This document shows, piece by piece, positions 29,549-64,000 of a stretch of 64,000 nucleotides of DNA (within the stretch, counting starts at the first letter, position 1; each line of letters opens with the position of its first letter). This stretch comes from Verrucomicrobiota bacterium (GTDB taxonomy: Bacteria > Verrucomicrobiota > Verrucomicrobiia > Limisphaerales > UBA11320): positions 124,001 to 188,000 of the forward strand of contig JACQFQ010000005.1 of assembly GCA_016199985.1 (NCBI GenBank). The letters are read 5' to 3'. Under the pieces are notes generated by a model. The model did no database searches and was not told the DNA's origin. It saw only the letters and a program-made list of their open reading frames with translations. The translations under genes and the position numbers were made by a program.

Positions 29549-29754
29549 GATTCCCATAGTTCGTAACATTTCCGTGACAAAACGAAAGGTTTTCCGCCGA
29601 CGGACGCGCGCTAATTCCGCGAAGACCTCGTGAGTCGCCAGCCGAGCCAGCCGCGAAGATCGAGCGCGCGCACAAGGATCCCATCGGCCTTCCCGCGCGC
29701 GAGTCAACCCGGCAGCCGCCAGGTCGGGGAAGAAGAAGAACCCCGCGGAGCGAA

Positions 29755-29784
29755 GGCGGCTCCTCCGTGGAATCCAGAGCCGCC
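29755..29784 (-). terminator. Possible terminator downstream of the GH32 gene
   Basis: GGCGGCTC (29755-29762) and GAGCCGCC (29777-29784) form a perfect 8-bp GC-rich stem with a 14-base loop. On the minus strand it lies about 50 bases past the GH32 stop and is followed within 16 bases by TTCTTCTTCTT. The T-tract is imperfect and distant, so this is tentative. Confidence 0.35.
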
Positions 29785-29833
29785 GCGCCGCCGCGGCGCC
29801 GCGACGGAACCCCATGCCTTGGTCGGCGTCCCG

Positions 29834-39209: not shown

Positions 39210-39464
39210 CGTCCATGCTATCTTGACGGCCTGGCCATCATCCGGGCTCAGGAGAACTATGTCGCGGAATGGGGAGACCCCAACGCGGAAATGCCCGCGA
39301 AGGCGCGGAAGATCCAGCGAGCCGCCCGGACGCTTCCCGCTGAGTTCGACCGGGCTTGGGACAAACAAATCCCCTTCACACGGCTGCCCGACGGCGACGT
39401 GTACGTTCCGGAGGCGATCCACCTATTGCAGCACCTCCGCGCGATAGAATCGGCGTGGGGATGA
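39210..39464 (+). CDS. Short coding frame without a clear start, possible partial gene
   Basis: The plus frame opens after a TGA at 39207 and closes with the TGA ending at 39464. It reads LAIIRAQENYVAEWGDPNAE, then MPAKARKIQRAARTLPAEFD and a plausible amphipathic end. Third codon positions are almost all G or C, as in real genes here, and the peptide composition is protein-like. Yet no ATG, GTG or TTG occurs in frame before the ATG at 39291, which would give only 57 residues. Its last 42 bases overlap the 3' end of the convergent subtilase. A TTTGGC/TATCTT promoter-like pair (39197-39224) lies immediately upstream. It could be a 5'-damaged gene, a gene with a non-standard start (CTG at 39231), or a start lost by a frameshift. 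The rest of the 39111-39422 gap has nothing visible. Confidence 0.45.
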   Translation, partial: RPCYLDGLAIIRAQENYVAEWGDPNAEMPAKARKIQRAARTLPAEFDRAWDKQIPFTRLPDGDVYVPEAIHLLQHLRAIESAWG

Positions 39465-41525
39465 CGTGTCCGTGTCGAGATAGGAGGTTTCCTGTTCCGT
39501 TGCGGTGAGTTCAGTCACCCGCTCCCAGGTGTTCAGATCCATCGATCGCTGAAGTTCATACCGTTGTCCCGCTTCTCCAAATAGTGTGATCAAATGCCCC
39601 GTCGCTGTGGGACGAACCGCAAGTGTCGGACGCAGGGGCGGGATCTGGGACCCGAGGAGCTCCAGTTTGAGATAGGAAACATGGCCCTTGTTCAGAAAGC
39701 GTTGGTCTGAGATCTGAACCGTCCATTCTCCATCGGCCAGCTCTCCCCAATGCCGGACTGAAGAGAAGGTCCAATTGATGAGGGTGTCGACGGCAGGGGT
39801 GTGCGGCTCGGCGAGGACGCTCTTCATTCCACCGGGCGATTTCAACACGATCGAAAGATCTCCCCAATAATCATGCTGCATGCGTGCTTGCAATGTGACG
39901 TGCTCCACCCGAAACCGCTTCGAATGCACCGGTAACGAAAGCGTGATGCCTTCAGACTTGTTGTCGGGGATGCTGACCCCGGGTTCCGGCTGAGACCATT
40001 CCGCCTGCACGTTCGTCATGGGTCCCAGTGACCTCCAGTTTAGGGCTGTTTGCACTGCCGCGCCGGCATTGATGAGGCCTGCGCCAAACTTGTGGTTGAA
40101 TCGGAGTCCCGCGCTGTTGGTCGACCAGTCCGCATCATCGGCGGCATTCTGCGTTGCTGTTCGGATCACAATCTCTTCCGCATCCCGCCAGCTGAGTCCG
40201 GGGTTCGCGGCGAGCATCATCGCCAGCACCCCGGACGCCAAGGGTGTGGAGGCCGATGTCCCATTGAAGTTGGTGCTGTAATCACCAGAGTCGGCTCCGT
40301 CCACACCCACAAGGTCCGTGGTGGTCAGACGGGGGAGACCGGCGCTGCCAGAAGGGGCGGATACCAACAGGCACGCTCCAGGCTCACCATACGAGGCCTG
40401 CCCGCCATTGTGGTCCACCGCACCCACAGCGAGAGTGTAGGGCGAGTTTGCGTAGCCGTCGTAGTTCGCGTTGTCACCCACGCGGCGTCCATTGCCCCCC
40501 GCGAACACCAGCAAAGTGCCGAGCCCCCCGCGTCCGTGTTCGACCGCATCTTTCAAGGCCGATGCCGCCAGGGTTCCGATTCCTTCCAGCAGTCCTGTTC
40601 CATCGGGAGCACCCCAGCTGGCATTCTTGATCGCAATAAGGTCGTTTCGATACGCGATGGCCTCCGCTTCCATTACATCGGTGGTGGGTCCTCCGATGAG
40701 CCTCAGTCCTACGAGAAGGGACCGTGAGGCAACGCCCACAATTCCGATTCCATTGTTGTCTCGCGCACCGATCAGGCCTGCGACCTGTGTTCCGTGGATG
40801 TCGACATCCAGGTTGCCCGGGCTGGGATCGTTGTCGTCCTGGTTCCAATCATGTCCGGGTATCTCCGTGCTGATGTTGGGCGCGAGATCCGGATGAGTCA
40901 TCTGCAGTCCATCATCCAGAACACCCACGACCACGCCTTCTCCATGGGTCAGAATCCACGCGGCTTCACACTGCAAATCCACACCCGCGGTTCCACCGCT
41001 TTGTCCTGTGTTTCTCAAATGCCACTGGCGTGGAAAGAGAGGGTCATTCGGCAGGCTTTTCCTTTCGCGTTGTCGCGCCAGCAGCGGTTCGCAACGTCGC
41101 ACCAGCGAGTTCGTCTCCCATCGCTGACATATCAGGAGTGCGGCCTCCGGATCCTTGATGGCCACTTCGAACCAGGCGCTGTTGTGCTTTAATGGTTTCC
41201 AGTCCTTGATGGCCTGCTGGGTGAAGAATGGAGCCGCCTGGTCTGGGTGAATCAGTTGCACAATCAGGTCTCCATCAAACTGGGCGCGAGTGGAAGGAGT
41301 TTCGAGGGCTCCGGCGGGATACAGAAATCGCCGGTGAGGATGTTCATTCGTGAGCGGCGAGGTTCTGGGTGTTGCAGGGGCGGGGATTTGAATTATTGAT
41401 TCCCTCTGGGTTGGGTGGAGCAACCACTCCTGGATCTGACCTGAGCGATGGAGGTGGAACCTGTTGGCGCCTGGGGATGCGCTTACGCTCTGCCCTTGGG
41501 ATGCGATGGCCTCGAGACAAGCCAT
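39423..41525 (-). CDS. S8 subtilisin/kexin-type serine protease with P domain
   Basis: 700 residues from the ATG at 41525. The catalytic triad is visible: Asp in VGVLDDGLQMTHPDL, His in DIHGTQVAGLIG, Ser in FNGTSASTPLASGVLAMM, with the oxyanion Asn region FAGGNGRR. Before the catalytic domain is an inhibitor/pro-region. After it, SIPDNKSEGITLSLPV to DGEWTVQISDQ is a P (proprotein convertase) domain, as in kexin and furin. A verrucomicrobial tail (YELQRSMDLNTWERV...RRFYRAEVLQ) closes it. The start is doubtful: upstream in-frame codons would encode HLLRFLPWLMACLEAIASQG, a better signal peptide, but only non-ATG starts are available (CTG at 41564). It diverges from the 7082-residue giant, which may be its substrate (inference). 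Confidence 0.88.
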   Translation of the reverse strand: MACLEAIASQGQSVSASPGANRFHLHRSGQIQEWLLHPTQRESIIQIPAPATPRTSPLTNEHPHRRFLYPAGALETPSTRAQFDGDLIVQLIHPDQAAPFFTQQAIKDWKPLKHNSAWFEVAIKDPEAALLICQRWETNSLVRRCEPLLARQRERKSLPNDPLFPRQWHLRNTGQSGGTAGVDLQCEAAWILTHGEGVVVGVLDDGLQMTHPDLAPNISTEIPGHDWNQDDNDPSPGNLDVDIHGTQVAGLIGARDNNGIGIVGVASRSLLVGLRLIGGPTTDVMEAEAIAYRNDLIAIKNASWGAPDGTGLLEGIGTLAASALKDAVEHGRGGLGTLLVFAGGNGRRVGDNANYDGYANSPYTLAVGAVDHNGGQASYGEPGACLLVSAPSGSAGLPRLTTTDLVGVDGADSGDYSTNFNGTSASTPLASGVLAMMLAANPGLSWRDAEEIVIRTATQNAADDADWSTNSAGLRFNHKFGAGLINAGAAVQTALNWRSLGPMTNVQAEWSQPEPGVSIPDNKSEGITLSLPVHSKRFRVEHVTLQARMQHDYWGDLSIVLKSPGGMKSVLAEPHTPAVDTLINWTFSSVRHWGELADGEWTVQISDQRFLNKGHVSYLKLELLGSQIPPLRPTLAVRPTATGHLITLFGEAGQRYELQRSMDLNTWERVTELTATEQETSYLDTDTSSPRRFYRAEVLQ

Positions 41526-41964
41526 CAGCCAGGGAAGGAAGCGAAGGAGATGCGACGTTGTCAGTATTTTGATGCGGCTACATCATCGTTTTCGTTCCAC
41601 ACTTTGACAAGGGATGCACCCTCACTTTTTTGGCCTTTTTTGGACTTGGCGCTTGTTGGCTCAATTTGGGTGTGCTAAACAAACCACCCAATGGGTTGAG
41701 TGTCGGCTGCCTCCCGGCTTTCACCATGGGATCATTCAAAGTTGAGTGCCTGAGTTGCCTCGTTTCCGGGCAGTTTAGTGAGAAAGCGAGCTTCAGGTCT
41801 CTCGGAGTTTAACGATGAATGATAGGGCGTCACCGATTCTTGACCTGGCTTCCACGGCCAGGGCATGTGCCATTTGAACGAGATCAACTCTTCAGGGGCC
41901 TCGCGCCATCGGCTCGATCAGTTGGTGCAGTGAGGCACGCTTCATAGTTTTTATTAGAAGTATT
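41526..41964. other. 439-base divergent region between subtilase and giant gene
   Basis: This stretch is more AT-rich than its surroundings and should hold both promoters. Visible elements are TTGACA at 41604-41609 (plus), without a good -10; a direct repeat TTTTTTGGCCTTTTTTGG near 41624-41642; and a 6-bp stem CCTGGC/GCCAGG (41844-41862). An AT-rich TAGTTTTTATTAG lies just before the giant's ATG. ORFs such as 41630-41812 have no protein-like character. I see no RNA gene. Confidence 0.45.
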
Positions 41965-44900
41965 ATGTCATCTAGACCGCATTGCTGGTTGCTTTCACTG
42001 GCCCCCCTCGTCCTCAGGGTCCTCCCGGCCTACCTCATCGTCACCCTCGCCACTGCCGTTTCCGCAGCACAGTGTATCAACCCGCCCAATGGGCTCGTTG
42101 CGCTGTACGGCGGCAATGGAACGATGGTGGATCCCATCGGCGGCAACCATGGATTCTCCGGGGGCGCTGTTACTTTCAGCAATGCGGTTGTGGGACAGGG
42201 TTTCGTCTTTCAGGACGATCCTTCCAGCTATCTTCGGCTTCCTGCATCGACATCCTGGATGCCAGCGGGGAATCAGTTTTCAATTGAGTGTTGGATTCTC
42301 CCCGACTTCACGGTGACGGGCGACAAACTGGACACCATTTTCTCCAAGCGGGATGGATGCAGCACCCTTTCCTATCACTTTGGCGTCTTTAAGGGACATC
42401 AGGGGGCGGCCAAGATCGGGTTGCTCTATTTTGGAGTCGGAGCCTTCGGTTTGGAGTCCACAAACCGAATTCCGGCGGATGGCAAATTTCACCACCTGGC
42501 GGCGGTATGTGATGGTTCGCAGACCGTGGACAATGTTCGTCTCTACATCGATGGAAAGGTGGTTGGATCCGGATCCGCCTCGATCTCCATCCCAAATACA
42601 ACCTCTTCCCCCGTCATTGGTCAGCACGGAGGATGCAATTACTTCAGCAGCGCCGTGATGGATGAGATCAGCTTTTACAATCGCTCTCTCACCGGCGCCG
42701 AGGTCCAAGGCGTCTATGCGGCGGGGGCTGCTGGTAAGTGTGCGCCTGCTGTCGCAGGAGTGTCGGCGCCCTATTTCAACAATTTCGAAACCGGAGTGGA
42801 GTCGGCTTGGTCGATGGGCACGATCGAGACAAGCGAACCCGAACGGTTCACCCAGTTTTTGGGCAGATTTGGATCGGGAGGCCCGATGCTCACAGTGACC
42901 GGACTTACCGTGGGTGTTTCGTATACCTTGGGGTTTGACCTGTATGTGATCGACTCCTGGGATGGCGGCAGCGCGCTGACGGGTGATGATTTTGCCGTCT
43001 GGGCGGACAGCGCGTCCGTGTTTCGTGAATCATTCTCCAATTACAATGGGAACCCACCCGGAGGCGCTCAATCCTTTCCCCGAAGTCCGGATGAGGGGCG
43101 CGCCAACTTCGGGTTCAATGCGAGTTTGGTGGATGCGATTTATCGCAGCATTGAAATCAACTTCACCGCTTCAAACGCCATCTCTGTCATCCGATTCCAA
43201 GGGGCCAACCTGCAGGCGGTCGATGACGAGTCATGGGGCCTTGACAATGTTCGGGTCCGAACGACCGCATCAGCCACCACGACCATCATCACCTCCAGTT
43301 CCCTCCCATCCTCCGGCTCTCCACAATCTGTTTCCCTCTCCCATTTCACCGCCTCGTCCTCCAAGCCCCTTCAGCCCAGCTCCGCCACCAATGCCGCGAA
43401 CTGGTCGCTACGGTCGGCGGGTCCCAATGGGCTTCTGGGCGACGCGGATGATGTGGCCATCACCCTGGGCGTTGCGCTCCCTCCCGCATTTTTCACCGGC
43501 AGAAGCTTCTCCTTCACCATTTTGAACAATGCTCCCCTGCAGCCGGGGCGATATCGATTCTCCAGCGGCGTGGGATTGCTGGATACCAACGGGGCTGCCG
43601 TCGCTGCCTATTCGCAGGATTTTGTGTTGGCGCATCCAACTGCCGGGAGGCTTGAGGCTCCGGGCAGCGACAGCACGGCAACTGCGTCGGATCTGGGCCT
43701 GACCGAAACGCCTTCGGGTTCCGGCTTCAGAACGTCCCTCGGCATCGGTGCGTTCGCAGCCGCCGGGGATGTTGATTATTGGCGCTTCGACGCAGAATCC
43801 GGGGACGTGGTCACGCTTCGTTTGGAGACTCAGGGTGTTGGTTCCAATCCGCAGATGCAGCTCCAGAATGTTTCCGGAAACACCCTGATCGGTGCGAGTG
43901 GCGGCGCCGATGGGGTCGTCGGAATTGAGAGGTACCGGTTCACGGGTCCTGGAACCTATTTCGTCCGGGTGTGGAGTGATCAGCGTCCGGCGCCCTACCG
44001 GCTGCGTGTCGATCTCGCCCGTGGATTGCAGCTCGAGAGCGAACCCAATGACTCAATCGCCCAGGCTGTGTCCTTGAATTTCATTTTCAACAGCGGACTG
44101 GCGCAAGCCCGCGTTGCGGGTTCGATGCTCGGGGACGATGACTATTTCTCATTGTTGAATTTCAGCGTTGGGAATTCGGTCAGCGTCAGCGCCCGTTACC
44201 CCGATGGTTCCACCCTGCCTCCGCAGGGATTGGTCATGACGCTTCTTGCGGGGAGCGCCCCGGTTTTCTCCCAAAGCGGCAACACCCTGAATTTCACGCT
44301 CTCGGCGAACACCAATTACTTTCTCAAAGTCTCCTCAACAAACACGGATCTTCGAGGACAGTATGTGCTGGATATTGTGGTGAGTGACAGCGTTCCTCCG
44401 CAGATCACCGGTGGCACCCTGCCGTCACAGGGCGGACTCACAGGCGCGATTCTGAACCGGTTTACCCTGAACTTCTCCGAGGACATGAGCGCCTCCACCG
44501 TGACCAATCCGGCATTGTATGAACTCCGCGGAGCCGGTCCGGATGGGACCTTCAATACCGCGGACGATTCTCTCTACCCATTGCTGCCTGATCCTTACAC
44601 GACGGGCCTGAGTGAGGGCTACAGCATCGTCGATGGACCCGCCCAACCCGGGCTGCTCCGCTTGCGGATCACCACCGCGTTGGCAGATCGCATTGGCAAC
44701 GGCCTGGCCGCCCCTTACGAGCTTTCGTTCACTGTGACAAATCCTCCAGGTTATCTGATGGAAACCCGCGGGAACCAAACGATGGGGACGGCGACCCCGT
44801 TCATCGGTGTCGGATCGGGAAGCCCGAGTGGAGTCCTGGGTTGGGCGTACGATATCGGCGGTCCATCCAATCCACAGGAACTCATCACTGCCGACATGAA

Positions 44901-47900
44901 TAGCGATGGAAAACCTGATCTGATCGTGCCCTACCGTTCCGGAAGTGTCTCCGTGTTCACGAATGATGGCAGCGGCCAGATGTTGCTCATGACCAACTTT
45001 GCAAATCTGAGCGACACCCCCACAGTCGCCGTGGGCCGGTTTAACAATGACAACCTTCCGGATATCGCGGTGTCCCGCTATGGGTCCGGCGCAATCACTC
45101 TTCTCCTGGGTATACCCGGGGGCTGGGCCGTGGGGCCGACAATTTCAGGAGTGCCTGGGCCCTATCAACTCGTTGCCGCTGATTTCAACAACGATGGCTA
45201 TTCAGACCTCGCCGTCCCGAACTTCGGAGGGGGGAATCTTGTGGTCCTGCTTGCAAATGGCGATGGCACCTTCAAAGCGCCGGTGACCTATGCGGTGACC
45301 GGGAATGTTTATCAGGTTGTCGCAGGGAAGCTGAACAACGATGCAAACGTCGATTTGGTGGCGACCAGCACCTCGGGGCAGATTGCTGTGCTCCTGGGCA
45401 AGGGGGACGGAACGTTCCAGGCGCCTGTTTATTACCCATCGGGTGGGAATACCCGGAGCGTTGCGGTCGGCGATCTCAGCGGTGATTCCATCCTGGATGT
45501 GGTGACTTACTCGGAAAATGCCTTTGCCGTCAATGTGCTCATTGGCAATGGGGATGGGACGTTCAAGCCTCTCGTTGACTATGTCTCAGGTGTGCGAGGA
45601 GCCTATGACCTCCGGCTTGGGGACTTTAATGGTGATGGGCTTTTGGATGTCGTCGTTCCGGGGAACGGCAGCGAAAGCTTCTCCGTACTGCTCAACAATG
45701 GCGGAGGGGCGCTGGGTGAACCGAGTGTGTACCCGCTTTCCGCGGGTCCGATCGGCGCGGCCGTCGCAGACTTCAATCTGGATGGACGATTGGATGTGAT
45801 GATCAGCCGTTACAACAGCTCCCTCATTTCGCTTTATGTCGGTGTCCCGTCTGTGAATCCTCCGCAGGATCCCCCCGGCTCCGGGATCAGAAGCGCGTTC
45901 GTTCGGGGCGCTTTGGCCTCCGGCGCCGATTCGGACTTCTACCAATTCTCAGGAATCGCCGGCGAGCAGGTGGTTCTGGCCATCGAAACACCGGGAGCTC
46001 CCGGCAGCTCAGGGCTTCGTGTGGATCTGTATCGCAGTGACAGCGTCCTGATTCAGGGCTTTTACAGCAACGCGAACGGATGGGGTCAATCGGCTCCCAT
46101 CACTCTCCCCACTTCTGGCAACTACTTTGTCAGGGTCACGGAAAGCTACGCCTATCGGGGTGAATACCGCCTTCGGCTGACGCGGGCGTCTGCAGGGATT
46201 GGATTTGAAACCGAGGACAACAACGCAATCTCCACGGCAAACTATCCCTCCTTTGTTTCCGCAAACAACCAGCTCAATGCGTCGGTCGCAGGATATCTCA
46301 GCTATGGCGATGCCGCCGGAGACTATTTTGACCTCGGGCTACTCGAGCCTGGGACATCGGTTAACCTGGGTTTGTTGCGTCCTTCCTCCTCGGGAAGTCG
46401 CGGGATTCTGACCGTGCACAACAGCACAGGACTGGCGCAGGCTTCATCGGTGTCCGGGGCGACAAACCTCCAGTTCACGGTGCCCAATGGAGGCGCCGGA
46501 AACTATTATGCCCGGGTTACGGCCGACCCACTCCCTCCTGCCCAGGTTTTTGGAGGGCAACCCGGAAGCGCGCTCCTGTTCAATGGGGCCGATCAGTTCG
46601 TAAAGGTTGCCGACTCCCCTTCGTTGCGTCCGGTGAACCTGACTCTGGAAGCGTGGGCGAATTTCACTGCTTTGGACGGATCCCGGGTTGTTGTGGGGAA
46701 GGGGCTGGGAAGTCAGGACAACGATTCCTACGCGCTGTGGTATGAATCCGGACAACTCCGTGGTGTTATTGGGAATGGCCCTTCTCTCGGGTTCCCATGG
46801 GCGCCGGAGCTCGGTCGATGGTACCATCTCGCCTATGTGTTTGATGATGCCGCCAACACGCAGACGCTCTTCGTGGATGGACAGCAGGCGGCCACCGGGG
46901 CTGTGAATGTCTCCATCAGCTACGATGCCGGGCCGCTTCACATCGGCGCGGATTCCGCCTACCTGACCGCGAATTATTTCTTCGCTGGAAAATTGGATGA
47001 AGTTCGCGTATGGAGCGTGGCCCGGGCGGCAAGCGAAATCGCCGCAACACGATCGTCGCGATTGGTCGGCAACGAGGCAGGTCTCGCGGGCTGTTGGCGT
47101 TTCGATGAAGGCGCCGGCTCGACGGCCTCCGATGCCACCGCCAACGGGAACACTGGAACATTGTTTGGTTTTCCGGTTTGGTCCCCCTCCGGCGTCGCAT
47201 CCCCGGCTCCCGATCCCATCTCCGCTCAATACCTTCTCACCCTCCAGTTGCAGAAGGCCCAACCGCTTCAGCTGACCTCCATCAGCCTCCCTGGCGAAGG
47301 AAGCGGTGTCAGCAACATCTGGCAAACCTTCACGGTCGGATTCAACACGGAGCTCGATCCGCGGATCAACCTGCTGGGCCGTTCGATTTTTACCCGCGGG
47401 GGAAGCCACTACTTGATGACGGATGCTCCCATGAAGTGGAAGGACGCCGAGGCCTTCGCGATTTCCCTGGGTGGGCATCTCGCGAAAGTGTCCAGCGCGG
47501 ATCTCAATGTGTATCTGCAGCGAACCTTCAGTTCCATCGCGAGTGGCGATCTGTGGATTGGGCTGACCGATCAACTGAATGAAGGGACATTTTCATGGGT
47601 GAGCGGGGGTGGTCCCGCCTTCACCAATTGGCGGAACGGTCAGCCGGACAACTCCAGCGGAGCGGACTACGCCGTGTTGGGGGTCTCGGATGGAGGCTGG
47701 TACGACGATCTGGGAGGCGCCCTCCGACGCGGTCTTGTGGAGGCGCCCGCGCTGCCCGATGGCGATGGCGACGGCTTCGCGAACGCCTTGGACCCTTATC
47801 CTACCGACAAGCTGAATGCGTTCGACCTCCGGAGTTCAGGGACTGACGGACAGTTCGACACGGCTGACGACGTTGTGTACCGATTGACGTTTTCCCCATA

Positions 47901-56900: not shown

Positions 56901-59900
56901 CCTCACCTCGTCCAACGATGCTCCAGGGTTCGAAGCCAACCCCGGGGATTGGAGTGGCATTGTCCTCGGAACCGGTTCCGGCAACTCGACACTGCGCCAC
57001 ATGTTCATCCGCTACGGCGCCGGTCTGACGCTCAGTAACAGCTCGCCGACCGTCGAGGCGGTGACCGCCACACGCAACACCCCCGCGGGTTTGCGACTGC
57101 TGGGGAATGCCTCATTGACCACGACCGCCGCATTGATCGCATTCAACGACATCGGATTGCAGAATCTTTCGAGCGGGTCGCTCAGTGTGACACAGTCGGT
57201 GGTTAAGAACAACGGGACGAACGCCCTGGCAGGGGCGGGATCATTGATCGTCGCGACAGAGAACTGGTGGGGAACACCGGTGGCCGCCGATATCGCCGCC
57301 ACACTCCGGGGTTCTGTGGATCGCAATGCCTTTCTATTGGGCGAACCGCTTCTGACTCCCGCCATCGGCTTGTTGAACAATGTCACACAGGTGGGGAGCC
57401 GTGATATCTCCATTCGCCTGGCCTGTCGCACCGCGGACGCCATGCGCGTCAGCGAGAACTCCGCGTTCTTGGCCGTGTTCTATCAGGCCTTCTCCTCTCC
57501 GGTTCCTTTCCAACTCAGCGAAGGAGGCGGCGCGAAGACAATCTATGCGCAATTCCGCAGTGTCACCGGACAGACCAGCGCGCCCGTTGCGCTCAACCTG
57601 ACCTACATCACCGCGGGTCCGACCCTCGCCACGGTGAGTTTGACTGAGGGACAGAATGTGACCCGACCTCTGACCATCACAGCCAGTGCCTCTGCGCCGC
57701 TTGGGATGTCGGGGATTGATCTGCTGGTGGATGATGAGTTGGTGACGACCCAGGCGGGAGGTTCATTCTCCTACCGTTACGATGTTCGCACCCAGTCGAG
57801 CGGGGTGCATCGCGTGAAAGTTGCCGCCCGGGACACCAGTGGCAATCTCGCCACCCGCGAGCTCAACATCACCCTGAACCTGGCCCCGCCTCCAGCCCCT
57901 GTGATCACAACTCCCGCCGTGGATTTGAATGGGAATGACCGTTCGATCACGGTGAAAGGCACCGCGGAACCGCTCATTCCGATTCGTTTGATCGTGAACA
58001 GCACCCCCGCCGTGACAGGAGCGGCGGATGCAAATGGCAACTGGAGTTTCGACAACGTTCCTCTGGTCGAAGGGAACAATGCTTTCGTGGCGTCGGCGTT
58101 CGATGCTTTGGGATCCGCCGCGTCTGAGGTTCGAAACGTTGTGAGCGACACCGGACCTCCCACCGCGCCGATCCTCGATACCCTCTACTACAATCTGATC
58201 GAGGGACTCAGCCTGACCTGGGTGTTCGCTCCTACGGGCGAGCGTCCGACCTTCTTCCGCGTCTACTGGCATTCGAACTCCTTCACTACGACCGGGCAGG
58301 CGGGTCAGCACAGCAGCTTCCAAACCGCAATGACCTTCCGTCCGTCTGGGCTCCAGCCCGGAAAGTATTTCTTCGCCGTGGCGGGCTATGATGCGGCGGG
58401 GAACGAGAGCGCGCTCTCCAATGTGATGCCGTTCCTCTACGATCCGATCCCTCCGTCGTTCATCGTTTCCTTCGACAAGGTCGCGCCTGTCGGGGTCGGA
58501 CCGTTGAAGATCACGATCGTTGCCTCTGAGCCCCTGGTGAGTCCACCGACCCTGACCCTGCTGCCCTATAACAGCACTCCCGTTTCACTCACGGTGAGCA
58601 ACGCGGCGCTCAACACCTTCGAGGCGGTGTTGAACGTGACTCCCGCGTTCCCGTCGGGAGCGCTCGGGATGATCATCACGGGTCGTGACCTCTCCGGGAA
58701 CACCTTCAATGGGCCGCCGTCGGGTCAACCGATGCAGATCGATGTCCAGGCTCCGTCCGGTCGTGTGGTCACCGTTCCTCCAGGCCCTGTTCAGACCACG
58801 AACTCTCCGGTCGTGACTGTCAGTCTCACACTCAGTGAGCCTGCGAAACCCGGCACAACTCCCACGATGAATTTCGCTCCGCCTGTCGGACCTCTGACCC
58901 CCGTTGTTCTTGCGGGCAGTGGATCCAATTGGGTGGGAACATTTACCGCTACGCCGTCGATGGGTTCAGGATTTGGAAATTTCACGCTCACTGCGCGGGA
59001 TGCCCTCGATAACCTCGGTCAGGTAATCTCCTCCGGCCAATCGCTGGAGCTCTACAACACGCCGCTGCCCAAACCGCCGGGTCAGCCGGTCAATTTCCAG
59101 GTCGCGAGCCTGAGCGAAGGACGTGTTCGGTTGAGCTGGAACTCTGTTTCGAATGCCGAGCTCTATCGCCTCTATTCACAGCCCGGGACGAACATCCTTC
59201 TCGTGCCGACCACGCTTGTGGCCGACAACATCCTCTCCAACTCCTGGGTCGATCTGCCGCCGGCTGACGGCTATTTCCTCTACGTCGTTTCGGCGGTTCG
59301 CCGTGGCGCGGAAGGAACGAACTCCATCACACGCGCTGTGTTGTCCGATCGCACCCCGCCTTCAGCCCCGATCCAGGTGGCCGTTCAGTTGCTCAGCAGC
59401 GGCGTGCAGGTCGCCTGGAAACCCGGGACGGGCGAAGCGCCATATTCCTACAAGGTGTACCGGAACGGTCAGCTGATCCGCAACTTGGGCGGGGCAGAGC
59501 CAAACGCCGTCAATGATTCACCTCCTCGAGGTGTGATGAGTTACACAGTGGCTGCGGTGGACAACCTCGGTAATGAGGCTTTGAGCGCTCCTGCGGTGAT
59601 TGAGCTCTTCGTGGGGGCGGTTCAAAACTTTACCGCGATGATTCGTGCCGGACAGGCGCCGGTGCTCAGCTGGAATTCCTCCGACAACACGGCCGTGGGT
59701 TACAATGTCTATCGAAATGGAGTGAAGCAGAACGGCGCTCCCGTAACGGCGCTTCAATTTACAGACAGTCTGGGGATTCCGTCCGGAAGCCGCGTCCAGT
59801 ACGTGGTTCGTTCGGTGAACTCCACGAATGCTGAAAGCGCGCCGCGAACGGTGGATGTGAATGACGTGACATTGGATCTCTTCCAGAACCTTGCGAACAC

Positions 59901-62900
59901 GGCGGAGCAACCGCTGGTCACGGACTACTTCGACAACCTGTTCGTTGTGGCATCGAATCGAACCACCTCCGCTCCGTTGCCAGCCGGAGTGGTTCAGGTG
60001 CGACGTTCGATTATCGGCCTTCCGTCCATCACCCGCAGCAACTCGGTTCACACGGTCGTGCCGCAAGCCGATGTGCTTGAGAGCTCCGTCATCCTGCCTG
60101 CCTCTTCGGTGACCGATCCTCAGACCTTCCTCGTCCGCCTCTATCAGGAGGTCGATGCCGGGGGCAGCACCGCGATCTACGAGAACAGCTTCGGCGGGGG
60201 TACCGTCGTGCGTCCCCAAAGCCGCATCACTCTCAGCGCAACCCAGCCGCCCTTGGCTGGAGGGCTCTCCACCCTGAGCGTCATCGTGTTCAATCCTGGC
60301 TTTGCCGACATCGACCTCTTGGTCAATCGCAACAACGGGGTGGATCCCGGCGACCTGAATGTTTCGGTCCGCAATCCTCTCGGCGCCGAAGTCACTCATC
60401 TGGTCTACAAAGGCACACCTCCCGGCGCCAGCTTCACGGCGGATGGACGCGGGTATCTGCGAATCCCTGCAGGCGGATCCCGGAACATCATCGTCGATGG
60501 GATCCTCGTGCCCGAGGCTTTGTCGACGAATACCGCCACCTTCGTTGCGACCTGCGACAAGATTTACTATCACCTGGCTCGTCCCGAGGAGGATGTGTCC
60601 GGGCCCATCTCGGGTTCGATGGTGTCCGATCTTTCCGTTACTCCGTATTACGGCATCGCGAAGACCGATCGGCTCCTGTACGCCGATGACCGCCCCATTT
60701 TGATCAGCGGCCAGGCGATCGACCGGCTCAGCGGCAATCCGAAGCCCAACGCACTCCTTCGCATCGGTTTCGCAATCAGCGGCGCCAAGTTCTGGCAGAA
60801 CGTCACGAGCGATATTTCGGGTGGCTTTACCTACCTCTACTCCCCGCCGCAAGGCATGAGTGGAACGCTCCATATTTGGGCAGCGCATCCGGACGTGGTC
60901 GACACGCTCAATCAGGTTGAGGTGAAGCTCTATCGCTGTTACCTGAGCCCGGCGAATGTCGACATCCGCATGTCCAAGAACGGCACGCAACGCTTTTTCC
61001 TCACGCTCATCAACACCGGTGACGAGCTGCTCACCGGGTTCAGTCTCACGGCCCAGACATTTGCCTTTGATGGTCCGGGCAAGACACTGACCACGAAGAT
61101 CAAGGCCCGGTCCTTGATGGAAACCAACTTCATCCTACAGCCCCGCTCGACCGAGAAGATCAACTTTGAGCTCGAAGCGGAGTTGGATGCGCCAGATCTC
61201 GCCGGGATTGATTTCTCACTGCGATCCAGCGAGGGAGCGTCGGCGAAATTCCATGCGAATCTGACGCTTCTCGAGGCCGATCCGCTGCTCGTGGTGATTG
61301 AGCCCTCCGTGGGGTATGTGGAGGCGAGCGTCAATCGCGGCGAGCTTCGGAGCAAGTCGATCACGATCCTGAACCGCGGTCTGCGTCCGTTGGAGGGAGT
61401 CGCCATGCAGATGCCGACCAATGTTGCGTGGATGTCCGTGAACCTCCCTGCCGATGCCCGCGGCGTGATCTCATTGCCCGACCTTCCCATCGGCTCGAGC
61501 AACAGCTTCACGATCGTCTTCGCGCCGCCTGCATCCACCGCTCTGGATTCATTCCAGGACAAGTTGATCATCCGTGGAACCAACTCGCCCGCGGTCTTTG
61601 AAGTGGGACTCTATGCGCTCGTCACCTCCGAAGCCAAGGGCAGTGTGAAGTTCTACGTGGATGACATTCTCGTCGAGGCGGTGCCGAACGCGACCGTTCG
61701 GATCCGCAATACTTTGCTGGGTCAGGATTTCACGGTGAAGACCGATGCCAACGGGTTCGTGACGGTGAATGACTTGCAGGAAGGTCCTTGGGCCTGGCAG
61801 GTCACCGCGTCCGGACACTCGGCCCAGGTCGGTGTCATCGATGTGATTCCGGATCAAACCGTGCTGGTGGAAACACGATTGTCCCGGGCATTGGTCACGG
61901 TGAATTTCTCCGTGGTGCCGGTCCCCTACACCGACCGATACGAAATCGTCATCGAGCAAACATTCGAAACCCATGTGCCCGCGCCGGTCCTCGTGCTGAC
62001 ACCGCCGCACATGGACTTCAAGAACGTCGGATATGGGTACGAGGTGACCTATATTGTGACCGCCAAGAATTATGGACTCATCCAACTGACGGATGTGACC
62101 ATCCGCGGCATGAGTGATGGGCATGGGGGCGTGCTGTCACCGCTGATCAGTTATATTCCGATCCTGCGGGCCCAGGAATCGGTGGAGATTCCGATGCGGT
62201 TCACATTCCTCGCTCCGACGGCTAAATCCGGATCCGGCAGCGGAGGCAAAGTGGCGAGAAACTACACGGACCGGAGAAAGAATCTGACTCGCGACATCGA
62301 TGCGGATGGCAACATCACGGGCGGAGTTCAGTTCCCACCCTCGTTCGGAGACAACGCGACGCCTGCCCAAGGGTTCGCGGATTGTGCGACGGGCGGGTTG
62401 GGTGGCCTGGCCGATTTCTTCGGTGGTTTGATGGCGATCGCAAATGGATGCGCGACCTGCGCTGATCTTCGAACAGCATTGCAAGTGGCGGCGACTGTCG
62501 CCGTGACTTACGCATTGCTCTGCTCACCGACATTCAGTCCCTTCCCGGTCTCCCCATTGCCCTGTCCGTCTGGGAACTGGGTGGTTTCATTCTTCATCAA
62601 CCTCGCGAGCTGTATCTGCCAGGCGCTCGGATGCTTTGGTTCTGGAGGCAACGGCGGTGGCAATAGTAATGGCGGGAGTGGCAACAACTCACCCCAGGGA
62701 TTCGCGCAGTTCAGTCCGAGTGGTCCAGGTTGCTTTGTGAAAGGCACCCTGGTTCATATGTTCGATGGGTCCACGAAGACCATCGAGGATGTGAAGCCTG
62801 GCGACCATGTGAAGACGGGTATCAGCGCCCAGGAGTTCGCCCTGGTTCGCGAAGTTCAGTCCCGACAGATCCCCGATCTGCTCGTCCTGGACTGCGGTCA

Positions 62901-63213
62901 ACGATCCCTCGAGACCAGCCCTGAACACCAGCTCTGGGTGGATGGCAAAGGCTGGACCACAGCGAGTCATTTGAAAGCGGGCGACTGGCTCTCTGATCTG
63001 GACGGCAAGCGCGTCCGCATTGCTGACATCCGATCCCTGCATCGGGAGACCACCGTTTACACCTTCGTGAACTCCGGCGATCACACCTTCTATGCCAATG
63101 GAATCCTGGTGCATGACAGCTGTGGGACTCCGGCAATTCTTTCGCCCTATGCCCGCCCTCTGCTGCCGACCATGCCTAGCGAGGGAACGCGGACAAAGGA
63201 GGTGGTCCGATGA
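41965..63213 (+). CDS. 7082-residue secreted modular giant ending in a Hint domain
   Basis: One uninterrupted frame of 21 kb. A signal peptide (LVLRVLPAYLIVTLATAVSA) precedes, by rough residue number, a LamG lectin domain (38-262) and a second lectin-like domain (267-434). Next come PPC domains (566-808). A module then recurs: an Ig-like unit (FSEDM...VDGPxQPG), an FG-GAP propeller (969-1292, 2069-2396, 3019-3346), PPC pairs, and LamG (1526-1732, 2627-2826) or C-type lectin (1806-1926, 3632-3747; LWIGLTD, WNPGEPNNS). Two CARDB domains (4111-4355), three InlB-like repeats (4359-4590), FN3 domains and a beta-helix-like stretch (4916-5122) follow. More Ig/FN3 domains lead to a carboxypeptidase-regulatory-like domain, a Cys-rich hydrophobic segment (about 6808-6895) and a Hint domain (6923-7051). 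It is presumably a cell-surface adhesin or matrix protein. Ligand and the fate of the Hint segment are unknown. Confidence 0.9.
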   Translation: MSSRPHCWLLSLAPLVLRVLPAYLIVTLATAVSAAQCINPPNGLVALYGGNGTMVDPIGGNHGFSGGAVTFSNAVVGQGFVFQDDPSSYLRLPASTSWMPAGNQFSIECWILPDFTVTGDKLDTIFSKRDGCSTLSYHFGVFKGHQGAAKIGLLYFGVGAFGLESTNRIPADGKFHHLAAVCDGSQTVDNVRLYIDGKVVGSGSASISIPNTTSSPVIGQHGGCNYFSSAVMDEISFYNRSLTGAEVQGVYAAGAAGKCAPAVAGVSAPYFNNFETGVESAWSMGTIETSEPERFTQFLGRFGSGGPMLTVTGLTVGVSYTLGFDLYVIDSWDGGSALTGDDFAVWADSASVFRESFSNYNGNPPGGAQSFPRSPDEGRANFGFNASLVDAIYRSIEINFTASNAISVIRFQGANLQAVDDESWGLDNVRVRTTASATTTIITSSSLPSSGSPQSVSLSHFTASSSKPLQPSSATNAANWSLRSAGPNGLLGDADDVAITLGVALPPAFFTGRSFSFTILNNAPLQPGRYRFSSGVGLLDTNGAAVAAYSQDFVLAHPTAGRLEAPGSDSTATASDLGLTETPSGSGFRTSLGIGAFAAAGDVDYWRFDAESGDVVTLRLETQGVGSNPQMQLQNVSGNTLIGASGGADGVVGIERYRFTGPGTYFVRVWSDQRPAPYRLRVDLARGLQLESEPNDSIAQAVSLNFIFNSGLAQARVAGSMLGDDDYFSLLNFSVGNSVSVSARYPDGSTLPPQGLVMTLLAGSAPVFSQSGNTLNFTLSANTNYFLKVSSTNTDLRGQYVLDIVVSDSVPPQITGGTLPSQGGLTGAILNRFTLNFSEDMSASTVTNPALYELRGAGPDGTFNTADDSLYPLLPDPYTTGLSEGYSIVDGPAQPGLLRLRITTALADRIGNGLAAPYELSFTVTNPPGYLMETRGNQTMGTATPFIGVGSGSPSGVLGWAYDIGGPSNPQELITADMNSDGKPDLIVPYRSGSVSVFTNDGSGQMLLMTNFANLSDTPTVAVGRFNNDNLPDIAVSRYGSGAITLLLGIPGGWAVGPTISGVPGPYQLVAADFNNDGYSDLAVPNFGGGNLVVLLANGDGTFKAPVTYAVTGNVYQVVAGKLNNDANVDLVATSTSGQIAVLLGKGDGTFQAPVYYPSGGNTRSVAVGDLSGDSILDVVTYSENAFAVNVLIGNGDGTFKPLVDYVSGVRGAYDLRLGDFNGDGLLDVVVPGNGSESFSVLLNNGGGALGEPSVYPLSAGPIGAAVADFNLDGRLDVMISRYNSSLISLYVGVPSVNPPQDPPGSGIRSAFVRGALASGADSDFYQFSGIAGEQVVLAIETPGAPGSSGLRVDLYRSDSVLIQGFYSNANGWGQSAPITLPTSGNYFVRVTESYAYRGEYRLRLTRASAGIGFETEDNNAISTANYPSFVSANNQLNASVAGYLSYGDAAGDYFDLGLLEPGTSVNLGLLRPSSSGSRGILTVHNSTGLAQASSVSGATNLQFTVPNGGAGNYYARVTADPLPPAQVFGGQPGSALLFNGADQFVKVADSPSLRPVNLTLEAWANFTALDGSRVVVGKGLGSQDNDSYALWYESGQLRGVIGNGPSLGFPWAPELGRWYHLAYVFDDAANTQTLFVDGQQAATGAVNVSISYDAGPLHIGADSAYLTANYFFAGKLDEVRVWSVARAASEIAATRSSRLVGNEAGLAGCWRFDEGAGSTASDATANGNTGTLFGFPVWSPSGVASPAPDPISAQYLLTLQLQKAQPLQLTSISLPGEGSGVSNIWQTFTVGFNTELDPRINLLGRSIFTRGGSHYLMTDAPMKWKDAEAFAISLGGHLAKVSSADLNVYLQRTFSSIASGDLWIGLTDQLNEGTFSWVSGGGPAFTNWRNGQPDNSSGADYAVLGVSDGGWYDDLGGALRRGLVEAPALPDGDGDGFANALDPYPTDKLNAFDLRSSGTDGQFDTADDVVYRLTFSPYSRGTNLSFTVVDGPLQNGSYRFTATTSVRDRFGNGLAANFVRKFFIVPLGGYVLEGRTNNSIAQATAMNGGLANGPMNGTLRETLRVSKGHATHHLVATNLNGDAYLDLIANNFSDDSITIQLGQADGSFLLSTNLPVGNGPVGFSLSDLNKDGKLDLSVNLYNAGRLAIFLGDGTGRFTAFTNYPTLSNPYYQTVTDLNGDGKLDILVANSSSGKVSVFYGLGDGTFQPRVDLTADSGTIDIAVADLVGDGKADDLVVLNRNAQNFMALIANGDGTYKAPVSYAATTTAGALALYDFDADGRPDVVVISGSTLCYFAGNGDGTFAARKTFEVGTSDPYQLALADMDSNGTMDVVIASYTGNAVVTVMNLGKGQFGGGLIFPVSANPIAVALGDFNRDGRIDVATANYNSDDIAILSSLPSQPFSLDATTLLQGGAVRGILVDASDVDYWSFSANANDKMTIAVESADAHYLSRLHYSLIKPDGRAFDDFYPEAYGRGDYSAVLTASGNYTIRVEPYDAYVGEYRLRVTLAPNSYQYETENNNTAATADALSFTFTGGRQTADVFGYFGSGDSADFFRLGNLSGGTEIALKPARPATGTVLAIPAVFNPAGALVASGSPGQTDFTYVIPAGQGGAYSARLTPAFATLPSGATTALWFDGATASVNVGAWSPGNKFAVQAWTMPTGPNPGRRTIAGAMGGCQDWGVVLLDGRPGVSYRPLGGGCSSTITAPGLAEPGKWMHIAGVSDGTNVFLYVNGVLAASAPAAPDWAPYGGGVLIGAEICCGNYYNGLISGVSIWNRPLTSQEVTAFAGTNPTGNEAGLVGYWPLDEGTGLTVKDLGSLHRTGTLVNGVTWAALAAGSRSGAGILAEYRLGISLRDVVPPSITGTTLPAAGSSTNTLIDRFDVSFSEDMAPATVTAAGSYELRNAGPDLVFDTADDSTYTVLNVPAYTTGLVASYLIPDGPLQPGRYRFTARTTLADTSGNALSSSFVQIFTLTTLAGFAQETRSNDTIATAVRLGQPAGGILGPFRPGAGLGVGGNPEYALLQDLNNDSKLDLLVINYGANSNAVYLGNGDGTFVLKTNWQGSGKGGLQPVLADFNGDTFLDLAVGNYGSASVSIYLGNGTGGFNTKTNYDTGVNPVGVVAGDFNKDGRMDLALANYGSSTLSVLLGKGDGTFQPAVTYPVGGRPYQLVAGDFNNDGRLDLVCPNSDTDNLALFIGKADGTFFAPTTIPAGDAPYSARAADLDGDGNLDLVSGSSDGTLYILRGNGNGTFQPPLKLATGLSPQYDIAVGDFDKNGRLDIAVTGYNQDRVAILLQSSTMVFEPSQSFPVGNSPIGVAVGDINGDGRPDLVIASYTDSQLTFLLGRETESLPPDGPTQVIATARGLLFNNSDQDFWSFPAKAGDSVQVALENVGDPGATGRCIDLYAPNGSVLENWCTDYYGRGGFSRSLPNSGIYYLRVRNNYNSIVEYRLRVSVVSAPVQVDSEYNSAYQSAQGLVWSAAAGQRSATVFGALHRDDPAGDFYKLGNLAAGVLIQLTANDPPHSTLTHQWALFKGGALVTNSAPAATSFAYSVPVGAADDYAVRVQAVAGTDGLMATYLLTLQLFDGEGPQVVSTSLPAPGTTTFDLLDRFSVSFSEDLNPEVTRLARRPSLYGGHAYLRTSVASSWRVAAAEAKAMGGNLVTINDASENQWLLDQFGGGLWIGLTDEAQEGAFAWQDGAPLSYVNWNPGEPNNSGQEDYAVLMNGGQWNDESLAASHFGIIEFSGVDSDGDGMPDTADAYPSDPLNVFDLRAAGADDLFDTPDDVIYQLQASDYASGTSMSFFVLNGPLQEGRVRFRVTPSIRDVFGNLAASTYDQIFRLGGVTPFQTETQSDDLPATAVALALQEGPANFSTAAGRGKLSSNADLDYWSLNAKAGDLLTLSVDIPGNPGASRLRYQVLNPDGSVAFNQVSDYYGPGYWGPIPLAATGTYRLLVSAYDGYLGEYRFRVSLASPPLLVEVEPNETITTATPLAFQQDANARFASVLGTQGLIVDLDYFDLGILTNGSSVFLNVRLPQSSSFVPVVALYNAGGQYQEEVQGGRSGDGIAEVRILTTGKYFALVRGGAGSPSTLNAQYQLDVQVVPTGTVSFPNLQVTGTTFPGGAPLSGQDISFGFTVANVGQLATPVGSWVDRAVLSQNSVLGDADDIPLGFFNHLGALNAAQGYAVNGSATLPEGVSGDFYLIAQTDAGNVVNEFIFETDNVTVSAGTFHVTRAPYPDLKVEDLQWSGPTGKGDYTLRWRTANRGDGSAKKGFRDRLIVRNLNTGQVLATSDIPVSPGFAAGALLQRETVVTTTNAGTYLVQVATDALDEVFEFDATSHSSAENNTATTQFIIAQYFDIAVVALPAEGGSVTGGGSFVSGNPATVTAKPNTNDRPYFFVNWTEAGVFQSAATDYTFSVSRPRSLVANFSLPAYSVLASNNPVVAGSVDGQGTYFHGATAVLTANPNPGYRFINWTEQGQVVGLFLKLTNSVTTNHFIVANYAEANPKHVVTTATSPENLATVSGSGTFSNGQSTTVAAPSLITNSPTLFSFREFRLNGAPNGLSPSFSKTFSTLDPSNIQYVAYYDSNSLLPVVVKAVGGFTNIAVGGFSTVTNPVPATTQYFITLQFDRSMNPGVTPLVLITNAGASVQPVVTGAGYWLATIASNDTYRTPPITFSNGMDGLAIVKVSKATDVGALKMDPADVMAMRIDVTPPAQPQITLVSSNSSSATFSWDAYSPPADLGSFRVYRSLAPFTSLAGLPPLTTLGKNARSFFFGGLALDTPYYVAIVAVDDAGNAPLSTTSTLLTLPRSIPPPVALTVTASDLTTASLSWPGYSTASLLGFDGFKVFYQTSPFSSVQGLTAKQSLAAGERNLNVPGLDRHLTYYFAVVGFNSAGGLNVSVTSQKWSDPFAGKITSSLTLGSAQASVIDILQPMLVTSNSTLTIRAGTTVRFAPGAGIVVDQGTVIANGAALDPIILTSSNDAPGFEANPGDWSGIVLGTGSGNSTLRHMFIRYGAGLTLSNSSPTVEAVTATRNTPAGLRLLGNASLTTTAALIAFNDIGLQNLSSGSLSVTQSVVKNNGTNALAGAGSLIVATENWWGTPVAADIAATLRGSVDRNAFLLGEPLLTPAIGLLNNVTQVGSRDISIRLACRTADAMRVSENSAFLAVFYQAFSSPVPFQLSEGGGAKTIYAQFRSVTGQTSAPVALNLTYITAGPTLATVSLTEGQNVTRPLTITASASAPLGMSGIDLLVDDELVTTQAGGSFSYRYDVRTQSSGVHRVKVAARDTSGNLATRELNITLNLAPPPAPVITTPAVDLNGNDRSITVKGTAEPLIPIRLIVNSTPAVTGAADANGNWSFDNVPLVEGNNAFVASAFDALGSAASEVRNVVSDTGPPTAPILDTLYYNLIEGLSLTWVFAPTGERPTFFRVYWHSNSFTTTGQAGQHSSFQTAMTFRPSGLQPGKYFFAVAGYDAAGNESALSNVMPFLYDPIPPSFIVSFDKVAPVGVGPLKITIVASEPLVSPPTLTLLPYNSTPVSLTVSNAALNTFEAVLNVTPAFPSGALGMIITGRDLSGNTFNGPPSGQPMQIDVQAPSGRVVTVPPGPVQTTNSPVVTVSLTLSEPAKPGTTPTMNFAPPVGPLTPVVLAGSGSNWVGTFTATPSMGSGFGNFTLTARDALDNLGQVISSGQSLELYNTPLPKPPGQPVNFQVASLSEGRVRLSWNSVSNAELYRLYSQPGTNILLVPTTLVADNILSNSWVDLPPADGYFLYVVSAVRRGAEGTNSITRAVLSDRTPPSAPIQVAVQLLSSGVQVAWKPGTGEAPYSYKVYRNGQLIRNLGGAEPNAVNDSPPRGVMSYTVAAVDNLGNEALSAPAVIELFVGAVQNFTAMIRAGQAPVLSWNSSDNTAVGYNVYRNGVKQNGAPVTALQFTDSLGIPSGSRVQYVVRSVNSTNAESAPRTVDVNDVTLDLFQNLANTAEQPLVTDYFDNLFVVASNRTTSAPLPAGVVQVRRSIIGLPSITRSNSVHTVVPQADVLESSVILPASSVTDPQTFLVRLYQEVDAGGSTAIYENSFGGGTVVRPQSRITLSATQPPLAGGLSTLSVIVFNPGFADIDLLVNRNNGVDPGDLNVSVRNPLGAEVTHLVYKGTPPGASFTADGRGYLRIPAGGSRNIIVDGILVPEALSTNTATFVATCDKIYYHLARPEEDVSGPISGSMVSDLSVTPYYGIAKTDRLLYADDRPILISGQAIDRLSGNPKPNALLRIGFAISGAKFWQNVTSDISGGFTYLYSPPQGMSGTLHIWAAHPDVVDTLNQVEVKLYRCYLSPANVDIRMSKNGTQRFFLTLINTGDELLTGFSLTAQTFAFDGPGKTLTTKIKARSLMETNFILQPRSTEKINFELEAELDAPDLAGIDFSLRSSEGASAKFHANLTLLEADPLLVVIEPSVGYVEASVNRGELRSKSITILNRGLRPLEGVAMQMPTNVAWMSVNLPADARGVISLPDLPIGSSNSFTIVFAPPASTALDSFQDKLIIRGTNSPAVFEVGLYALVTSEAKGSVKFYVDDILVEAVPNATVRIRNTLLGQDFTVKTDANGFVTVNDLQEGPWAWQVTASGHSAQVGVIDVIPDQTVLVETRLSRALVTVNFSVVPVPYTDRYEIVIEQTFETHVPAPVLVLTPPHMDFKNVGYGYEVTYIVTAKNYGLIQLTDVTIRGMSDGHGGVLSPLISYIPILRAQESVEIPMRFTFLAPTAKSGSGSGGKVARNYTDRRKNLTRDIDADGNITGGVQFPPSFGDNATPAQGFADCATGGLGGLADFFGGLMAIANGCATCADLRTALQVAATVAVTYALLCSPTFSPFPVSPLPCPSGNWVVSFFINLASCICQALGCFGSGGNGGGNSNGGSGNNSPQGFAQFSPSGPGCFVKGTLVHMFDGSTKTIEDVKPGDHVKTGISAQEFALVREVQSRQIPDLLVLDCGQRSLETSPEHQLWVDGKGWTTASHLKAGDWLSDLDGKRVRIADIRSLHRETTVYTFVNSGDHTFYANGILVHDSCGTPAILSPYARPLLPTMPSEGTRTKEVVR

Positions 63214-64000
63214 ACTCTCAAACTCAACACGAGACCGAATCCGCAGTGAATACTTCGTATCTGAACCGTCTGGGCCGTGCGTCGCTGAAGATCCTGGCCA
63301 TCGTCGCTCTCCTCGGCGCCCTTCCATTGCTGCACGGCCAGCAACAGTTCCAGGGCGTTTGCTCGCGGGTCAAGATCCAGATCGAGCAGGAGCTCACCCT
63401 CGAGCGCATTGGCTTTGAAGCAACGCTTGAAGTCACCGACAACGACGGTTCAGATCCGATCACAGACTTCTTCGCCGAGCTCACGTTCGAGAATCCAGTC
63501 GGGACGAATGGATTGCCCGTGGATGCTTCATCGTTGTTCTTTGTTCGTGCTCCGACCTTCGAGAACATCAGTACCATCGATGGATCGGGGGTGATCTCCC
63601 CCACGACCAAGGCCGTCGTGAAGTGGTTCATCATCCCCAAGATCTCTGCGGGCGGAAAAACTCCAACCGGGCAGCGCTATCGCGTGGGTTGTAAACTCGC
63701 CGGGAAGATCCGCGGGTCCACCATTCCTTCCGACGTTCTGTTTGCCATCCCTGACACGATCACGGTCCGGCCTGAGCCCCAGCTTGAGATCACCTATTTC
63801 CAGCCTCGGGATGTTCAGGGCGATGATCCGTTCACACCCGAGGTGGAGAGCCCCATTCCCTTTACCCTCGGCGTATTGGTCAAAAACGTCGGCTACGGGA
63901 CGGCGCGCAAGCTGAAGATCGATTCCAAACAGCCAAAGATTGTTGAGAACATCAACGGCCTCCTTCTCGTGGCCCAGCTCCTGGGCGCTCGCGTGATGGA
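63210..64000 (+). CDS. Exported protein coupled to the giant, 3'-truncated by window edge
   Basis: The ATG at 63210 overlaps the giant's TGA as ATGA, and AAAGGAGGTGG sits a few bases upstream, inside the last codons of the giant: an excellent Shine-Dalgarno. The frame is open to the end of the window (263 complete codons). A hydrophobic segment (LKILAIVALLGALPLLHG, about residues 27-44) ending before QQQFQG acts as signal peptide. The mature part is beta-rich: VKIQIEQELTLERIGFEATL, FFAELTFENPVG, and a CARDB-like stretch (PFTLGVLVKNVGYGTARKLKI). It is not otherwise recognised. The coupling implies that it is made in fixed ratio with the giant and is probably its extracellular partner. Confidence 0.82.
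   Translation, partial: MNSQTQHETESAVNTSYLNRLGRASLKILAIVALLGALPLLHGQQQFQGVCSRVKIQIEQELTLERIGFEATLEVTDNDGSDPITDFFAELTFENPVGTNGLPVDASSLFFVRAPTFENISTIDGSGVISPTTKAVVKWFIIPKISAGGKTPTGQRYRVGCKLAGKIRGSTIPSDVLFAIPDTITVRPEPQLEITYFQPRDVQGDDPFTPEVESPIPFTLGVLVKNVGYGTARKLKIDSKQPKIVENINGLLLVAQLLGARVM

What the first reader, a model, noticed from the sequence alone, without database searches (positions are those of the whole stretch)
39423..64000. Candidate undescribed locus: subtilase, Hint-ended giant and coupled exported partner
A kexin-like protease with a P domain diverges from a 7082-residue adhesin-like protein that ends in an intein/hedgehog-type Hint domain. The Hint gene is translationally fused by ATGA to a further exported beta-rich protein. 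Seen: all three genes, their order, signal peptides and catalytic motifs. Known: P-domain subtilases process proproteins, and Hint domains self-cleave. Inferred: the protease and the Hint domain mature or anchor a giant surface fibre, with the partner acting as anchor, chaperone or next fibre segment. The block also seems lower in GC than the region before 39.4 kb, which would fit acquisition as a unit.
Basis: partly seen in the sequence, partly recalled or inferred. Interest (0 to 1): 0.85.

Follow-up and report, generated by a model that had tools for sequence, protein, structure and literature searches.

The report
Split giant surface protein ending in Hint
A giant exported protein of about 7,000 residues ends in a self-cleaving (Hint) domain and is made together with a second exported protein that is really its own missing tail; this split pair sits in a four-gene operon conserved across Verrucomicrobiota and into one sulfate reducer, which no paper found here describes.

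Summary
The three genes are real and placed as described. The compositional step is real in this genome only. The protease is not part of the conserved unit; the coupled partner is.

In the same genome four paralogues are single chains (3.8-4.4 kaa) holding homologues of both the giant's C-terminal stalk and the partner, so giant plus partner is one ancestral protein cut in two, with Hint at the cut. An unbiased scan on the partner found 40 loci. All 38 with upstream sequence carry a Hint-ended giant immediately before it (one as a fused ORF). Most are followed by an exported rhodanese without its catalytic Cys and an FN3-type exported protein: a four-gene operon. The SD-ATGA coupling is usually kept.

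The Hint evolves several times faster than its flanks, yet Cys1, the block B His and a terminal Cys are invariant in 40 aligned copies, while the C-terminal Asn is absent from all 44. Hints from other proteins of the same order keep His-Asn. N-terminal cleavage without C-terminal cleavage is therefore likely (Hedgehog-like). The sister partner clade follows RHS giants with toxin-like tails, so the cut site looks like an old polymorphic-toxin payload site. Whether the giant's freed C-terminus is hydrolysed or ligated is open.

The parts
39423..41525 (-). Subtilase (S8) with P domain, 700 aa; neighbour shared by a few relatives, not part of the conserved operon
41965..63213 (+). Giant exported protein, 7082 aa: LamG, FG-GAP, C-type lectin, PPC, CARDB, FN3, InlB-like and Ig-like modules
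60637..62373 (+). Conserved stalk end of the giant (aa 6225-6803), homologous to the region just before the variable insert in single-chain paralogues
62374..62730 (+). Pre-Hint alpha-helical, hydrophobic, Gly-rich region (aa 6804-6922) with two Cys invariant in 40 orthologues
62731..63126 (+). Hint domain (aa 6923-7054): G|C1-F, T/S63-x-x-H66, W75, C131; C-terminal Asn replaced by Asp
63127..63213 (+). 28-residue tail and stop; not conserved across the 44 loci except that its last codons encode the Shine-Dalgarno of the next gene
63210..64000 (+). Coupled exported partner, first 263 of 1340 aa (ends at contig C4 position 191232): homologue of the C-terminal part of single-chain paralogues; Ig-like domains then a beta-propeller

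Best explanation
The locus encodes one giant surface or secreted protein delivered as two chains. Chain 1 is the 7082-residue adhesin-like stalk ending in a Hint domain. Chain 2, made by translational coupling, has its own signal peptide and is the remaining C-terminal part of the protein. The cut lies at a site that in single-chain relatives holds variable inserts and in the sister split lineage holds RHS repeats with toxin-like tails, so it probably began as a payload site of polymorphic-toxin type. In this lineage no payload remains. The Hint is kept for its N-terminal chemistry: after export Cys1 attacks the preceding peptide bond (usually Gly-Cys-Phe), and the Hint with its short tail leaves, freeing the stalk's C-terminus to assemble with chain 2. 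The dead rhodanese and the FN3-like protein are secreted accessories. Shown by sequence: split, coupling, operon conservation, catalytic residue conservation, payload-site diversity. Inferred: that cleavage happens, that the chains assemble, that the accessories act on the complex.
For: Partner homologous (30-34%) to the C-terminal part, and giant aa 6225-6760 to the preceding part, of four single-chain paralogues. Partner-based scan: 40 loci, Hint giant directly upstream in 38/38 testable, mostly with rhodanese and gene 4 next. SD-ATGA or GTGA coupling mostly conserved. Hint C1, F2, H66, W75 and C131 invariant in 40, T63 38/40, while the median column is 45% conserved; Asn absent in 44/44, present in other Hints of the same order. 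Hint dN 0.28-0.44, against 0.06-0.13 for the stalk and 0.10-0.22 for the partner, as expected of a removed domain. Fold nearest to BIL domains. Hint-type partners form one clade, 100/99; sister partners follow RHS giants.
Against: No biochemical evidence of cleavage or assembly. The invariant terminal Cys may mean a reaction other than simple N-terminal cleavage. Faster evolution of the Hint could be relaxed constraint. The payload-site history rests on single-domain trees with long branches (warns of this). Single-chain relatives cannot show that two chains assemble.
Confidence: 0.62

Rival explanations
1. Hedgehog-like ligation: the thioester at the giant's C-terminus is passed to an amine or hydroxyl on the partner, a lipid or a glycan, covalently anchoring the stalk; the invariant C131 takes part or acts as a redox switch.
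For: Cys1, TxxH and mostly Gly-Cys-Phe kept, Asn lost, a terminal Cys invariant; Hedgehog also has a unique C400 and transfers its thioester to cholesterol (PMC9163320). Translational coupling suggests matched amounts of both chains.
Against: No acceptor identified; no sterol-recognition-like region after the Hint (tail 7-62 aa). The partner's predicted mature N-terminus is Gln, usually QQQ, not Cys, so native-chemical-ligation to its N-terminus is unlikely.
Confidence: 0.2
2. A polymorphic toxin: the Hint releases a C-terminal payload into a neighbour, and the downstream gene gives immunity.
For: Hint domains serve this role in polymorphic toxins (PMC3482391); a sister split lineage has RHS repeats and toxin-like tails; the same order has a Hint giant with an AHH-motif tail and a small overlapping gene (G117).
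Against: Tail only 7-62 aa and unconserved in 44 loci; C-terminal Asn expected for freeing a payload absent in 44/44; the next gene is a 1340-aa exported structural homologue, not an immunity protein.
Confidence: 0.1
3. One reading: the P-domain subtilase matures the giant together with the Hint.
For: Divergent orthologous S8 gene beside the giant in four genomes and other S8 genes nearby in a few; S8 shares the lower GC.
Against: No S8 beside most loci with sequenced flanks; no match at all in four of 23 genomes.
Confidence: 0.08
4. An assembly error or a recent frameshift cut one gene into two.
For: Single-chain paralogues exist; L105 has both parts in one frame.
Against: Same split with own signal peptide and usually SD-ATGA in 43 of 44 loci across several phylum-level groups.
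Confidence: 0.01

Closest known systems
Bacterial intein-like (BIL) domains
   Same: Fold (PDB 6y75, 2lwy best matches), Cys1, TxxH
   Different: C-terminal His-Asn of type A BILs is lost; sits at the very end of a giant; invariant Cys two residues past the lost Asn
Hedgehog autoprocessing (Hog/Hint) domain
   Same: Usually Gly-Cys-Phe cleavage motif, N-S acyl shift residues, no C-terminal Asn, C-terminal-end Cys
   Different: No sterol-recognition-like region; weaker fold match (1at0, TMt 0.72); exported bacterial stalk
Polymorphic toxins with HINT or RHS (Zhang et al. 2012, PMC3482391)
   Same: Stalk plus C-terminal processing module; sister split lineage has RHS and toxin-like tails
   Different: No payload and no immunity gene here; coupled to a 1340-aa exported structural partner and two further secreted proteins
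Single-chain giant surface proteins of Verrucomicrobiota (same genome: C16, C46, C65, C76)
   Same: Same stalk end and C-terminal domains
   Different: One chain, variable Cys-rich or other insert instead of Hint and gene boundary

Membership tests
Hint superfamily | Horseshoe all-beta Hint fold | tested here: met
   AF2 pLDDT >90 over the whole Hint; Foldseek E 1.7e-12 to 6y75, TMt 0.80-0.84 to BIL structures
Hint superfamily | N-terminal Cys and block B TxxH | tested here: met
   C1 40/40, H66 40/40, T63 38/40 with Ser in the other two
Intein / type A BIL | C-terminal His-Asn for C-terminal cleavage or splicing | tested here: not met
   Asn 0/44; D, E, Q or H instead
Split intein (trans-splicing) | IntC fragment at the N-terminus of the partner | tested here: not met
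   Hint is complete on the giant; the partner starts with a signal peptide then an Ig-like domain
Hedgehog | Asp46 general base and sterol-recognition region | tested here: inconclusive
   No room for a sterol region in a 7-62 aa tail; position 46 not aligned to a Hedgehog structure
Polymorphic toxin (PT-HINT) | Toxin domain after Hint | tested here: not met
   Tail 7-62 aa, unconserved
Polymorphic toxin (PT-HINT) | Adjacent immunity gene | tested here: not met
   Next gene is the 1340-aa exported partner in 43 of 44 loci, and fused to the giant in L105
Rhodanese (gene 3) | Catalytic Cys in the active-site loop | tested here: not met
   Pfam PF00581 E 5e-15, but Cys absent from the loop in the window and all 28 related loci
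Kexin-like subtilase (S8 + P domain) | S8 catalytic domain plus P domain | tested here: met
   D/H/S motifs at residues about 204, 244, 424
Hint autoprocessing activity | Actual self-cleavage | not testable with these tools
   needs expression and MS

The most novel reading that the evidence does not exclude
A bacterial counterpart of Hedgehog anchoring: an exported giant whose terminal Hint, stripped of C-terminal cleavage and given an invariant second Cys, hands the giant's C-terminus as a thioester to an acceptor on its coupled partner or on the envelope, covalently joining or anchoring a multi-thousand-residue surface stalk without sortase.
Probability: 0.18. Interest if true: 0.88.

Novelty: new variant of a known kind. 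Interest (0 to 1): 0.64.

Why it matters
It turns an isolated oddity into a defined, conserved operon with a testable question: what does a Hint domain do when it has no payload and cannot cleave its own C-terminus, yet keeps its N-terminal chemistry across distant bacteria? It gives a natural case of a giant protein made as two exported, translationally coupled halves, beside single-chain paralogues in the same genome. It links Verrucomicrobiota giants, whose functions are mostly unknown, to polymorphic-toxin architecture. One member lies in an isolate record (Desulfatibacillum alkenivorans DSM 16219), so it can be tested.

Tried and rejected
Protease as a core partner: rejected by gene maps and genome searches. 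Assembly artefact: rejected by conservation. Trans-splicing split intein: no IntC on the partner. Ligation to the partner's N-terminal Cys: predicted mature N-terminus is Gln. Transmembrane anchor before Hint: hydropathy only borderline (21 of 40 above 1.6), so left as 'hydrophobic helical region'. Partner fold against PDB: only generic Ig-like matches. Recent acquisition from GC: step seen here but not in relatives. Tandem repeats in the giant's DNA: none. Paper searches found no description of this operon, but only open-licence papers are held. Contig numbers guessed from accession numbers were mostly wrong and were replaced by a search.

Full report
WHAT IS THERE. The window is G000:C4:124001-188000, and contig C4 runs on to 196349. 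The S8/P-domain gene (39423-41525, -), the giant (41965-63213, 7082 aa) and the ATGA-coupled third gene (from 63210) are all present. The giant is a mosaic of LamG, FG-GAP, C-type lectin, PPC, CARDB, FN3, InlB-like and Ig-like modules. The third gene is 1340 aa in full. Two more genes follow beyond the window: an exported rhodanese-like protein (284 aa) and an exported FN3-like protein (562 aa).

ONE PROTEIN IN TWO CHAINS. A search of the same genome with the third gene's start gave four further hits, each inside one open frame of 3767-4420 aa. Alignment shows giant aa 6225-6760 matching the part just before, and the third gene matching the part just after, a variable insert in these single chains. 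The inserts are Cys- and often Gly-rich and match no Pfam family. Other single-chain relatives carry other inserts at this site, one an M15 peptidase-like domain. In the window the site holds a hydrophobic helical region, the Hint, a stop codon and a new start.

CONSERVATION. Hint and partner searches of 196 relatives gave 15 Hint copies in own-order genomes, each followed within a few hundred bases by a partner gene. A pattern scan of genome contigs using the partner alone, blind to Hint, gave 40 loci. Two lack upstream sequence; all 38 others have a Hint-ended giant immediately upstream, and most have the rhodanese-like gene and gene 4 downstream. Record titles span Verrucomicrobia, Opitutales, Kiritimatiellae, Lentisphaerae and an isolate record of Desulfatibacillum alkenivorans DSM 16219; some MAG titles (Bacteroidales, Gammaproteobacteria, Akkermansia muciniphila) should be treated with caution. 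In L105 the two parts share one frame, but the partner's signal peptide is still there. In most of the 15 close relatives the giant's stop and the partner's start overlap as ATGA or GTGA, usually after a strong Shine-Dalgarno.

THE HINT. AlphaFold gives the Hint at >90 pLDDT throughout, nearest to bacterial intein-like domains, with Hedgehog and inteins also matching. In 40 aligned copies only C1, F2, H66, W75 and C131 are invariant; T63 is 38/40, and Gly precedes C1 in 29/40. The median column is only 45% conserved. The usual C-terminal Asn is absent in 44/44, while Hints in other proteins of the same order read HN. Within the genus the Hint is 53-65% identical while the stalk is 81-91% and the partner 70-84%. 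So the domain drifts fast, except for the residues needed for N-terminal thioester chemistry and one extra Cys. I infer that it removes itself at Gly6922|Cys6923 and cannot cleave at its own C-terminus. Hedgehog too keeps Cys1 and TxxH, lacks the splicing end and has a distinctive Cys (C400) (PMC9163320); the structural equivalence of C131 and C400 was not tested.

WHERE IT CAME FROM. In a tree of 73 partner domains the Hint-type partners form one clade (support 100/99); one unlabelled row inside it, L031, is the G003 Hint-type locus. Its sister is the partner pair of G074 and G168. Those and further hits across the phylum sit downstream of giants with the same stalk end followed by RHS repeats, in several cases an RHS core, and variable tails. 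By eye the tails include an HExxH-like, a lipase-like GHSLGGG and a GIY-YIG-like motif; these assignments were not confirmed by a family model. Cys-less rhodanese-like genes also lie near some of these partners. The cut site therefore looks like a polymorphic-toxin payload site, and the Hint clade like a branch that lost its payload.

THE PROTEASE AND THE COMPOSITION. Divergent orthologous S8 genes stand next to the giant in G000, G004, G100 and G015 only; other S8 genes are near it in G158, G172, G003 and L115. They are absent from the flanks of G120, G143, L098, L108, L114, L121 and L130, and four of 23 genomes have no match at all. GC drops from about 0.635 to 0.59 at the S8 gene and rises again after gene 4. 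In relatives the operon is not clearly poorer in GC than its neighbours.

WHAT REMAINS OPEN. Whether the Hint cleaves, what (if anything) takes the thioester, whether the two chains assemble, and what the rhodanese-like and FN3-like proteins do.

Noticed in passing
L149 / L171 (G444:C54): GUP-type giant ending in an RHS core and a lipase-like (GHSLGGG) tail, followed by a partner-like exported gene.
   Followed up: partly
L174 (G457:C69:8000-27000): RHS giant with a GIY-YIG-like tail, then an LRR protein of 302 aa (possible immunity gene), a small exported ORF and a partner-like gene.
   Followed up: partly
L093/L094 (G117:C41): A 5108-aa Hint giant whose Hint keeps His-Asn and is followed by a tail with an AHH-like motif and an overlapping 194-aa gene: looks like an ordinary polymorphic toxin, useful as a contrast.
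   Followed up: partly
L035 (G162:C616): Single-chain giant with an M15 peptidase-like domain at the variable insert site.
   Followed up: no
L105 (G198:C227): Giant and partner read as one frame, with Hint and signal peptide both inside: natural fusion, frameshift or sequencing error.
   Followed up: partly
L169, L172, L173: Rhodanese-like proteins near RHS-type or other partner-like genes also lack the catalytic Cys but end in a CxxC or CGC motif.
   Followed up: no
window 21815-29815: A 2666-aa protein on the minus strand has relatives just downstream of the operon in L130 and L134.
   Followed up: no
G004:C39:46189-46797: A single-chain giant lies about 11 kb from the split pair on the opposite strand.
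   Followed up: no
L055/L060 (G148:C268): Two Hint domains in tandem in one 759-aa frame.
   Followed up: no
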